The notes below the pieces were generated by a model, which was not told where the DNA came from, did not search any database, and worked only from the letters and a program-made list of their open reading frames with translations. Positions 32,201-34,576 of a stretch of 64,000 bases of DNA are shown here, one piece after another. The stretch spans positions 186,001 to 250,000 of the forward strand of contig JAVXUO010000799.1 in assembly GCA_033065855.1 (NCBI GenBank), in the 5' to 3' direction. The stretch comes from Escallonia rubra. Taxonomy: Eukaryota > Streptophyta > Magnoliopsida > Escalloniales > Escalloniaceae. The number at the start of each line of letters is the position of its first letter. Positions within the stretch are counted from its first letter, which is position 1. The translations under genes and the position numbers were made by a program.

Positions 32201-34576
32201 ACATAACTTCATCATCGTTCCTCCTTTGCCATTCCTTCTTTTCATTCTCACTAGCATTATCACCGGGCTCCAAAAGTGGCTCGCAATTTAAAATGTAGAC
32301 AATCCTTAACGCCGTGAGTAAGAATTTGACTTTGTCTTGCCAACGGCCAAAATTGCTACCATCGAATTGATCCAACTTGATGAGGTCTTGATTCATCATC
32401 TTGATAGAGGCACTAGTTTCCGCTTCCATTTTCTTCAAATAACGTTCTAAACTTGTTGGGAAAAATTGTCGGGAAATGGAAACGAAAAAAGGCTTTGAGG
32501 CGTATCTAAAGACACTTTCTTTAGAACGTTATTTGCCCCCACTCAAGATAGAGTTTGCTAATGGGTTGCAGGCAAATTCGTTCCCAGGATACAACAAAGC
32601 CTGAGAAGAACTGCGATTAGCAATATCGAAGATCTCCGAAAAAATCTTTGTGAAACAATAGTAAATAGATTTTGGGAGATTATGAGAGCAATCTAAAAAT
32701 CTTTGTGTATATATGTTAAACTGGATTGCCAAAAAAGGTATTTATATGGACACACGAGCAAATGGAGATCACATGGAAAGAGGACGTGAAGCCTCTCTCA
32801 GAATTTATCCCAACGGTCATGAATTTTAGATTCATTTTCCGTTAGCAAATTCACAACGGATTCAACCGTTGTTTTCTCCATTGGCGCCAATGAGTGAAGA
32901 GTGCCAAATTGCACCGCTTCATGAATGTTGCCTCTTCACTTTGAATTCTCAAAAGAAACGGTTGCCGCTTCATTGAGAAGAAGAAGAAGACTGCGGCACC
33001 AATCTTCATGCCAGCTTCTTCATTCAAGTGAAGGCTGCCTTCTTTATTCAAGTGATGGCTGCCTCCCATATAAAAGAAAAAGCAATCCACTTTAAGTTAT
33101 CTAGATACCCAAGTTAATTAAATAATCAAACACCCATGAGATTTAAGATTAAATCTCAACAATGCATGGATCGATCTCTTGTTTCGAGCTGGTGTTTCAT
33201 TGGCTTGAGATTAATGGGCACGTCTCAAAAGTTAAGGACAAGACATGACTATAACGTCAGTCAATTTGATAATGACCGAGTGATGTTATTTCCGGTCCAA
33301 ACCAAGAAATTCTTTAGATATATGATCCATAATGGATCTTGTTTTATCCTTGCTCAGAGATTAAAAATACGATTGAAAGTTTGAAGAAAGGAAATGAGAA
33401 GGAGCCCTCGACCCGCAATAGATTGGAGGGATTTATTCAATCTTTTTTCTTTGATGTTTTTAACAGCGACAACGTGCTACCACTAATTTTGGCTTTTTTG
33501 AGAGGTTGTATTTGAAACTTTGTATCACTTGAAAAATAACAAAGTTCTGACTTTTTTGAAAGTATTGCGTTGAGAACTATAAACGATACGACTGCCAACG
33601 ACAAAATTTGGATGGAAATTTGAATGCAGAATGTGGAAACCCATGTTATTCCGGGTGACGGAGTGGCCTTTATTACAGCACAAGCAATGGACAATGGTAC
33701 ATCCAATAGCGGCTTCTCGTTTTTGCACTGCAACGTGACTGGTACCGGCGGTCACGCTTACTTGGGTAGGGCTTGGAGGGCTTTTGCAAAGGTGGTGCAT
33801 GCCTACACTGCAATGAGTGATGTAGTGAAACCTGAAGGGTGGTCAGATAATCGTCACCCTGATTATGACAAGTGAGCCACCATTCCTAACTCATTTGTTT
33901 CTTTTGTTTTGTTTTTCCTATTTATATTTTTCTTTAGTCACTAAAAATAGTCCATTTGATTGTTTTTGACAACACTTAGATAATTTTTACAAGGGTTAGA
34001 GATGTCTTTTCTTCCTATGATGATCTTAATTATAACGAAGAAGGACTACTTTGTCGAGTTCAATAATTCGAAAAGGGTTGTTTTGTTGGACAAGTTCTTG
34101 GTTGCAACCTCCGGCGGATGTCAATTGTAGCTAAATTTTGTCAGTGTCACTTTTGATAACACCTACGCTGATAAAATTTAGCGCAGAAAAAAGTATTACC
34201 GAAATTTCCACAATTTCTCTATCATATTTTTTTTTCCCATCATCGCTGCCATCGGACTAGTTAAAAATGCTCCTCTCCTAGTTTGTCAGATGGACTCTGT
34301 TTTAGGGATGAAGGGAGTGCATAATTTTTCGTTCAATGACAGTTAACAACCGTGCCTATGCTTGCTTGATCATGTTGCATACCTTGACAAATCATTTGAT
34401 CTTGTCAACCTTACAGGAACTTGTTCTATGGGGAATACGATTGCAGTGGACCAGGATCGGACGTGTCTCGTAGGGTGGGATTCGCTAAGAAGCTAAGTGA
34501 TGCAGATGCTAAACCCTTCCTCAGCCTCTCCTTTGTGGACGGTTCCAAGTGGCTGCTTCCTCCTGCTAGTCTTTAG
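26220..34576 (+). CDS. Pectinesterase P3 (PPME1-like) with a copia element in intron 2
   Basis: Exons 26220-26702, 26959-27165, 33630-33871 and 34417-34576 have the same lengths and phases as P2 and also encode 363 residues. The signal peptide (MANTAVEAVILTIIFFIPVV), Q175, Q197-D198, D219 and R277/W279 are all present, so the coding sequence is intact. Differences from P2 near the active-site region include GFAKSIFL in place of GNAKSLFV. Intron 2 (27166-33629) is 6.46 kb because a Ty1/copia element is inserted in antisense orientation; in P2 the same intron is about 0.8 kb. The splice sites themselves are untouched, so the gene may still be expressed, though the insertion could cause premature polyadenylation, mis-splicing or silencing (inference). 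Confidence 0.9.
27226..27933 (-). repeat. 3' LTR of the copia element
   Basis: 708 bp, read as identical to 32454-33161. On the minus strand it begins TGTTGAGATTTAATC and ends TTTCCCAACA. Confidence 0.95.
28491..29882 (-). CDS. Copia reverse transcriptase-RNase H part (downstream of stop)
   Basis: In the same frame as the upstream part and contiguous with it; the frame opens with GTG directly after the TGA and runs 463 codons. It carries the copia RT motifs: QMDVKTAFLNG, LYGLKQAP and the catalytic YVDDMLIIG. These are followed by RNase H with GYTDASW, the STMESEFVAL block and IYCDSEATL. It has no start codon of its own. It is intact to its natural end (MGLKPIH, stop). Confidence 0.9.
   Translation of the reverse strand: MFRRKYNSDSSVQTFKARLVAKGFKQKEGVDYFDTYAPVARITSIRILFALSSIYHLCIHQMDVKTAFLNGNLDEGIYMEQPEGFVLPGNKNKVCKLVKSLYGLKQAPKQWHEKFDSCVLSYGFKHNSADKCIYSKFTKDYGVIVCLYVDDMLIIGTNLIGINETKQYLSSKFKMKDLGEVDTILGIKVTKHSGGFALCQSHYVEKILSKFQHLGFKDFSTPYDSSIKLTKNLGRPVAQLEYASAIGCLMYLMHCTRPDIAFAVCKLSRFTSNPSVEHWKGISRIFGYIKRTIELGLFYSEEPGTLEGYTDASWITSIGDSKSTSGWVFTLGGGAVSWASKKQTCISHSTMESEFVALAATGKEAEWIRNLLLDIDLWPNPMPPITIYCDSEATLSRAYSSTYNGKSRHISLRHDFVRQLIKDGIITIIYVKSNKNLADPLTKSLSRELVIITSREMGLKPIH
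29883..32429 (-). CDS. Copia gag-protease-integrase part of the polyprotein
   Basis: Starts at the ATG giving MEAETSAS (32429), 24 nt inside the LTR; a frame upstream of that has only a TTG. 848 codons are followed by TGA. Domains in order: gag with FDGSNFGRWQDK near the N-terminus; a CCHC zinc knuckle CHVCGKKGHYAREC; retropepsin active site WWFDSGATAHIC; integrase HHCC region ending CEVCIKSKM; and the catalytic core with DICELNG, FITFIDDCSRY and PQQNGLAERKNR. The stop falls where copia proteins run on into reverse transcriptase (after GSKPIGCK), so reverse transcriptase cannot be made by normal read-through-free translation. One stop and no frameshift suggest very recent inactivation. Confidence 0.9.
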   Translation of the reverse strand: MEAETSASIKMMNQDLIKLDQFDGSNFGRWQDKVKFLLTALRIVYILNCEPLLEPGDNASENEKKEWQRRNDDEVMCRGHILNALSDRLYNFYKSFDSAKEIWKALEYKYKVQEEGTNKFLISEYNDFTMVDGIPILHQVHELQDIANKICELDGKLPESFQVGMIIAKLPPSWKDYRKKLLHREKKFTLEKIQKHLRIEEESRNRDKKGEAEFNSKVNYVDAASGKSFHALQVKKEDNMFKRNTNHNKNKKKSKCHVCGKKGHYARECRHRKSGKGATGESANMVEENLVAMVTEINMADSSSSSGWWFDSGATAHICKNRFLFKTYEELPNNQEVQMGNLARAKVVGKGSVELNFTSGKTLTLLNVLHVPDIRKNLVSVNLVCKKGFRVLFESDKLILSKNGNFVGKGYGCDGMFKLSLNEINVASSYIVEPFNLWHSRLAHLNYKYIRNMMHLGLISCSHVSTDKCEVCIKSKMTKKPFKSVERKSELLDLVHSDICELNGLITRGGRRYFITFIDDCSRYTYVYLMRTKNEAFSMFKTYKSEVENQLNKKIKIFRTDRGLEYFPNEFNTYCEEHDIIHQKTASYTPQQNGLAERKNRTLVEMTNCMIMNAGLPLNLWGEALLTACHVHNRIPARNSDKTPYEFWKGRKPNLEYLKVWGCLAYYRVPDPKRTKLGPRALKGVFVGYAQHSKAFRILNLESNVIVESRDVTFFECKFISDFRGESSKSDLISNSRTEPNFDVDNSVVPSEEPRRSQRHKKGKDLGKDFISPDSIVFLVEGSREIILNQTPIVLNVDSDPMTYTEAVTSRDAAFWKEAINDEMDSIMSNGTWTLVDLPPGSKPIGCK
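32454..33161 (-). repeat. 5' LTR of the copia element
   Basis: 708 bp. On the minus strand a TATA box (TATAAATA, 32746-32739) would start transcription near 32710, leaving about 255 nt of R/U5. It contains the 16-nt arm at 32520-32535 that pairs with the primer-site region. Confidence 0.95.
33630..33871 (+). other. Exon 3 of P3 (after the copia insertion)
   Basis: Included separately because it lies 6.4 kb from exon 2. It encodes the NVETHVIPGDG to HPDYDK segment with LGRAW (active-site Arg and Trp). The acceptor is TGCAG at 33625-33629 and the donor GTGAGC at 33872. Confidence 0.9.

What the first reader, a model, noticed from the sequence alone, without database searches (positions are those of the whole stretch)
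32436..32535. Copia element whose primer-binding position is a 16-nt perfect complement of its own LTR
The gag ATG is only 24 nt from the 5' LTR, and no TGGTATCAGAGC-type tRNA site fits there. Two nucleotides inside the LTR boundary, 32436-32451 reads CAAATAACGTTCTAAA on the plus strand. 32520-32535, inside the LTR, reads its exact reverse complement TTTAGAACGTTATTTG. In the sense RNA the two form a 16-bp stem with a 68-nt loop across the LTR/internal junction, occupying the canonical PBS. Known self-primed elements (Tf1 of fission yeast) pair the RNA 5' end with the PBS. Here the pairing arm would lie about 175-190 nt downstream of the predicted start, so this would be a different arrangement, or the stem may have another role such as packaging or translation. 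I know of no such copia lineage, but cannot search.
Basis: partly seen in the sequence, partly recalled or inferred. Interest (0 to 1): 0.8.

Follow-up and report, generated by a model that had tools for sequence, protein, structure and literature searches.

The report
Self-priming site of a plant retrotransposon
A jumping gene in a plant genome carries, where a borrowed tRNA would normally start its copying, a sequence that matches a piece of its own end repeat; such self-priming has already been predicted for a group of plant elements, but the matching piece seems to lie inside the RNA and not at its tip as in yeast.

Summary
A 5.9-kb Ty1/copia element lies on the minus strand (LTRs 27226-27933 and 32454-33161, 708 nt each, no differences). 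Two nt after its 5' LTR, 16 nt are the exact complement of 16 nt inside the LTR; none of 20,000 shuffled LTRs gave more than 13. No tRNA-Met site fits. The best explanation is a self-primer. This is not unknown in copia: PMC6317226 predicts self-priming for the plant copia lineage TAR (Houba, Osr-1). The element meets its sequence criterion; lineage membership by phylogeny was not testable. New here: 5 of 7 other fetched copies match the window's LTR only from position 444-458 on (three of them also at 1-48), just past the TATA box (416), while 2 share its U3. I read the break as the RNA 5' end. The primer arm (LTR 627-642) would then sit about 170-185 nt inside the RNA, unlike Tf1. Covariation in diverged families stays untested: the genome server stopped answering. 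The eight close copies show no two-sided changes and no extra conservation of the LTR arm. A second 16-bp repeat, around the polypurine tract, is a published copia feature (PMC2829016).

The parts
32436..32451 (-). primer-binding site: in element sense TTTAGAACGTTATTTG, 2 nt after the 5' LTR
32520..32535 (-). self-primer arm inside the 5' LTR (LTR positions 627-642), exact complement of the site
32452..32453 (-). two nt between LTR end and primer-binding site
32454..33161 (-). 5' LTR, 708 nt, TG...CA
27226..27933 (-). 3' LTR, identical to the 5' LTR
32739..32746 (-). TATAAATA box, LTR position 416; the only other TATA(A/T)A word found in the LTR is at 449
32704..32718 (-). inferred U3/R border (RNA 5' end): LTR 444-458, where similarity to five copies begins
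   Evidence: inference
32474..32488 (-). U5 stretch that can form a 15-bp duplex with the stretch 3' of the primer-binding site
   Evidence: 115 of 5000 shuffles as good
32417..32431 (-). partner of that U5 stretch; contains the gag ATG
29883..32429 (-). gag, pre-integrase and integrase domains; closed by an in-frame stop at 29883-29885
28491..29882 (-). reading frame with the reverse transcriptase (RVT_2)
27936..27942 (-). polypurine tract GTGGGGG, 2 nt before the 3' LTR
27943..27958 (-). left arm of the inverted repeat around the PPT/3' LTR junction
27887..27902 (-). right arm of that repeat, LTR positions 32-47

Best explanation
It is the self-primer and primer-binding site of a plant Ty1/copia retrotransposon. 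In the RNA the LTR arm pairs with the primer-binding site. The RNA is cut just 3' of the arm, probably by the element's RNase H as reported for Tf1, and the freed 3' OH starts minus-strand DNA at the site. About 68 nt of U5 are copied up to the cut. The DNA then transfers to the 3' R region, which must extend past LTR position 642. Shown: the 16-bp complementarity, its position, the lack of a tRNA-Met site, and copies with a foreign U3 joined to a common R-U5. Inferred: pairing in the cell, the cut, priming, and that the RNA starts near LTR 444-458. If so, the primer is the 3' end of a leader fragment of about 185-199 nt, not a short RNA tip as in Tf1.
For: 16-bp exact match at the canonical position, longer than in any of 20,000 shuffles. 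No tRNA-Met word and no TGG near the LTR. It meets the published criterion for self-primers (at least 10 bp, starting 0-5 bp after the LTR), on which PMC6317226 bases its prediction for TAR. The site and arm are kept in the 7 other copies fetched: 16 of 16 pairs in 4, 15 of 16 in 3, with G:U pairs kept in L003, L005 and L006 (one T inserted in the site of L004 is not counted). RNA start: TATA at LTR 416; similarity of five copies begins at LTR 444 (L003, L004), 451 (L008), 453 (L005), 458 (L007) (binned for L003, L004, L008).
Against: The unconstrained RNA fold does not form this stem: it puts the arm in a local hairpin and pairs the region 3' of the site with U5 (-73.7 kcal/mol, against -66.2 with the stem forced). 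The program cannot weigh pseudoknots. The arm is not more conserved than its surroundings: 6 of 112 sites changed in the arm, 2 of 112 in the site, 47 of 1050 in R before the arm, 16 of 462 in the U5 loop. No two-sided compensatory change was seen in the 8 copies. No host tRNA set was available. For L005 and L007 no LTR start was found, so what lies upstream of the break may not be a U3.
Confidence: 0.72

Rival explanations
1. A fragment of a host tRNA (or another small RNA) is the primer, and the LTR match is secondary, for instance captured during an aberrant reverse transcription.
For: Half-tRNA primers are described for other copia lineages (PMC6317226). 19 of 46 exact genome matches to the 16-mer lie outside the family places scored and were not examined.
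Against: 24 of the 46 exact matches lie inside scored family places and 3 more within 7 kb of one. The match to the LTR is longer than any in 20,000 shuffles.
Confidence: 0.08
2. The stem is an RNA switch for translation or packaging: it places the gag ATG just outside a long duplex, and primes nothing.
For: The ATG begins 6 nt after the site and lies in a possible 15-bp duplex with U5. The competing folds would suit a switch.
Against: The element would then have no recognised primer site; the position 2 nt from the LTR is that of a primer-binding site.
Confidence: 0.1
3. The self-primer is at the RNA 5' end exactly as in Tf1: transcription starts at the arm (window about 32535), and the break at LTR 444-458 only marks a promoter border.
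For: A CA dinucleotide lies at the arm's start; in Tf1 and the fission-yeast elements compared with it the primer is at the RNA's 5' end (PMC10085805, passages).
Against: The only TATA(A/T)A words in the LTR are at 416 and 449, 178 nt or more upstream of the arm; the break is about 170-185 nt upstream of the arm.
Confidence: 0.15

Closest known systems
TAR lineage of plant Ty1/copia elements (Houba, Osr-1), PMC6317226 (passages)
   Same: Copia; LTR sequence complementary to the site just after the 5' LTR; self-priming predicted for the lineage
   Different: Membership by RT/RH/INT phylogeny not tested here. The passages read do not say where in the LTR or the RNA the primer lies.
Tf1 and the Tf1/sushi group (Ty3/gypsy), passages of PMC10085805 and PMC4600332
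   Same: LTR-encoded self-primer pairs with the site after the LTR; a possible further duplex between U5 and sequence 3' of the site
   Different: Different superfamily. In Tf1 the primer is at the RNA 5' end (its length of 11 nt is recalled); here it appears to lie about 170-185 nt inside. A third duplex was not found above chance.
Fungal GalEa copia elements with a Conserved Hairpin Site, PMC5445492 (passages)
   Same: Copia elements without a recognised tRNA site
   Different: Their authors report that they never detected a U5 sequence complementary to the hairpin site.
[quoted passage not shown] passages)
   Same: The second 16-bp repeat here borders the PPT with its left arm and starts its right arm 31 nt inside the 3' LTR
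   Different: A separate feature, at the other end of the element

Membership tests
Ty1/copia | copia-type gag and RT, integrase ahead of reverse transcriptase | tested here: met
   Retrotran_gag_2, then rve in the first frame; RVT_2 in the second
TAR lineage (PMC6317226) | self-primer: at least 10 bp of the 5' LTR complementary to a site 0-5 bp after it | tested here: met
   16 bp, 2 nt after the LTR; criterion read
TAR lineage (PMC6317226) | RT, RH and INT cluster with TAR in a phylogeny | not testable with these tools
   No reference TAR proteins at hand; two scans of viral contigs gave no relative, one of genome contigs a single stray contig at 54% identity
tRNA-primed copia | site complementary to the 3' end of tRNA-Met | tested here: not met
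   best fit 5 of 12 mismatches; no TGG within 0-5 nt
half-tRNA-primed copia | site complementary to a tRNA interior | not tested
   no host tRNA set; genome server unavailable; ARAGORN found no tRNA in the window
Tf1-type self-priming | primer is the 5' end of the RNA | tested here: inconclusive
   TATA position and the break at LTR 444-458 point to an internal arm; no RNA data
Tf1-type self-priming | two further duplexes between LTR and sequence next to the site ('pretzel') | tested here: inconclusive
   3' duplex 15 bp, -18.0 kcal/mol, 115 of 5000 shuffles as good; other duplex 955 of 2000 as good
LTR retrotransposon insertion | 5-bp target-site duplication | tested here: not met
   ACACA against ATGCA

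The most novel reading that the evidence does not exclude
A self-primed retroelement whose primer is not the tip of its RNA but an internal stretch about 170-185 nt downstream. The cut would sever the leader, with most of R, from the template and turn it into a primer of about 185-199 nt, so strand transfer would have to use R sequence 3' of the cut. A PPT-like word, AGTGGGGG, directly 5' of the arm (32536-32543) could set the primer's upstream border.
Probability: 0.45. Interest if true: 0.62.

Novelty: new member of a known kind. Interest (0 to 1): 0.4.

Why it matters
Self-priming in copia rests on sequence predictions, as far as the passages read show. A plant family with many copies, identical LTRs in the window copy and copies with foreign U3s gives a place to test it, and to ask whether a self-primer must be the RNA's 5' end.

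Tried and rejected
Relatives elsewhere: viral contigs with RT and with gag-integrase gave no relative. Genome contigs gave one contig filed under a bacterium, with RT at 54% and, in the 1.2 kb that I read, what looks like a gag start after pol; I drew nothing from it. Rfam: no match at E 1 in 26000-34000 or at E 0.1 in the whole window. The third 'pretzel' duplex: no better than chance, dropped. Within-family covariation: 8 close copies only, the window's own included, no two-sided changes, inconclusive. A first motif search for the junction failed for L002, L004 and L008 or hit the wrong place and was replaced by BLAST. The PPT-side repeat looked new at first and is a published copia feature. 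Papers: PMC6317226, PMC10085805, PMC4600332, PMC5445492, PMC5006619, PMC1940013, PMC5501947 read as passages; PMC2829016 as passages and section 8 in full; PMC4963935 abstract and passages; PMC2206039 and PMC4659654 passages (irrelevant). PMC3601003 was seen in listings only (one search failed). The Tf1 papers of Levin and others were seen only as citations.

Full report
What is there. The element lies on the minus strand. The genome held has 566 Mb in 3222 contigs; that it is a plant is my inference from its neighbours (pectinesterase, LSD1-type zinc finger). LTRs are at 27226-27933 and 32454-33161, 708 nt each, without a difference. Gag, integrase and reverse transcriptase come in copia order. 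An in-frame stop at 29883-29885 splits pol ahead of the RT domain. The flanking 5-mers differ: ACACA against ATGCA.

Two nt after the 5' LTR, TTTAGAACGTTATTTG (element sense) is the exact complement of CAAATAACGTTCTAAA in the LTR, positions 627-642. In 20,000 dinucleotide-kept shuffles of the LTR the longest match was 13. No TGG follows the LTR within 5 nt, and no place in the first 60 internal nt fits the tRNA-Met word better than 5 mismatches in 12.

What it most likely is. PMC6317226 (passages) predicts self-priming for 12% of the plant LTR elements surveyed, and in copia for the TAR lineage, which includes Houba and Osr-1. Its criterion, at least 10 complementary bp starting 0-5 bp after the LTR, is met. 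Whether this element is a TAR member by phylogeny could not be tested, as no reference proteins were at hand. Houba circles were detected in drug-treated rice (PMC5501947, passages), so a lineage with this predicted trait can be active.

Where the primer lies. The TATA box is at LTR 416 and the only other TATA(A/T)A word at 449. Of the seven other fetched copies, five (L003, L004, L005, L007, L008) match the window's LTR only from position 444, 444, 453, 458 and 451 on, three of them (L003, L004, L008) also in positions 1-48; two (L002, L006) share its U3. For L003, L004 and L008, identity per 24-nt bin is 12-67% between 49 and 456 and 79-100% from 457 on. For L005 and L007 no LTR start was found, so the sequence upstream of the break may be a foreign U3 or something else. 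Unrelated U3s joined to one R-U5-gag are what template exchange during strand transfer would leave, with the border at the start of R. This is inference from established reverse-transcription steps, not a map of the RNA. It puts the arm about 170-185 nt inside the RNA. In Tf1 and its fission-yeast kin the primer is at the RNA's 5' end (PMC10085805, passages).

Further structure. U5 positions 32474-32488 can pair over 15 bp with 32417-32431, which includes the gag ATG (-18.0 kcal/mol). As good in shuffles: 115 of 5000 for the 68-nt loop against 25 nt downstream, 15 of 2000 for the two chosen pieces, 102 of 2000 for the best duplex of the loop with 60 nt downstream. That resembles the second duplex of the Tf1 'pretzel'. 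A third duplex is no better than chance (955 of 2000).

Results against. The nested minimum-energy fold prefers other pairings by 7.5 kcal/mol. Within the family the arm is no better kept than its surroundings: 6 of 112 sites changed, against 47 of 1050 in R before it, 16 of 462 in the U5 loop, 2 of 112 in the site and 6 of 420 in the gag start (seven copies against the window's). Pairs: 16 of 16 in L001 (the window copy itself) to L005 and 15 of 16 in L006-L008; one inserted T in L004 is not counted. There are no two-sided changes. One search named 250 candidates, scored 40 and gave 8 as loci; those 8 are all that I compared. The wider search and the fetches did not complete. The 16-mer with up to one mismatch has 121 places in the genome, against 44 for the pattern read backwards. 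Of its 46 exact places 24 lie in scored family places, 3 within 7 kb of one, and 19 were not examined.

The other junction. The only other exact 16-nt inverted repeat found in the window (27887-27902 and 27943-27958) brackets the polypurine tract and the 3' LTR start. It folds with z -2.72, 3 of 200 shuffles as good. PMC2829016 section 8 describes such a repeat for Sireviruses and for almost half of the other copia elements studied, so it is known. LTR 1-48, which holds its right arm, is kept (83-92% per bin) in L003, L004 and L008, whose U3 is otherwise foreign.

Verdict. A real feature, most likely a self-primer, and a member of a kind predicted in print. The internal position of the primer is the part worth testing.

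Noticed in passing
27887-27902 and 27943-27958: Second exact 16-nt inverted repeat, around the polypurine tract and the 3' LTR start; a published feature of many copia elements (PMC2829016).
   Followed up: yes
32536-32543 and 27936-27943: The word AGTGGGGG directly 5' of the self-primer arm also occurs at the polypurine tract; it may be chance or an RNase H signal.
   Followed up: no
32706-33113, and L003, L004, L008 (perhaps L005, L007): Family copies carry unrelated U3 sequences joined to near-identical R-U5-gag: promoter exchange within one retrotransposon family.
   Followed up: partly
27221-27225 and 33162-33166: LTRs are identical but the flanking 5-mers differ (ACACA, ATGCA), so the copy may be a recombinant or its site was altered.
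   Followed up: no
29883-29885: In-frame stop splits pol just ahead of the RT domain in a copy whose LTRs are identical.
   Followed up: no
21489-22193, 26220-26846, and 24005-25673 with 34342-35807: Two pectinesterase N-terminal reading frames, and a set of direct repeats spaced about 10.2 kb that bracket the element: a duplicated region with the insertion inside.
   Followed up: no
242-685, 15041-15505, 38383-38781: Three fragments with a nucleotide-diphospho-sugar transferase match (PF03407).
   Followed up: no
L009 (NZ_SWBM01000016.1): A contig filed under the bacterium Robertmurraya kyonggiensis, coverage 0.3 by its title, encodes a copia-type pol with what looks like a gag start after it; probably eukaryotic contamination.
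   Followed up: no
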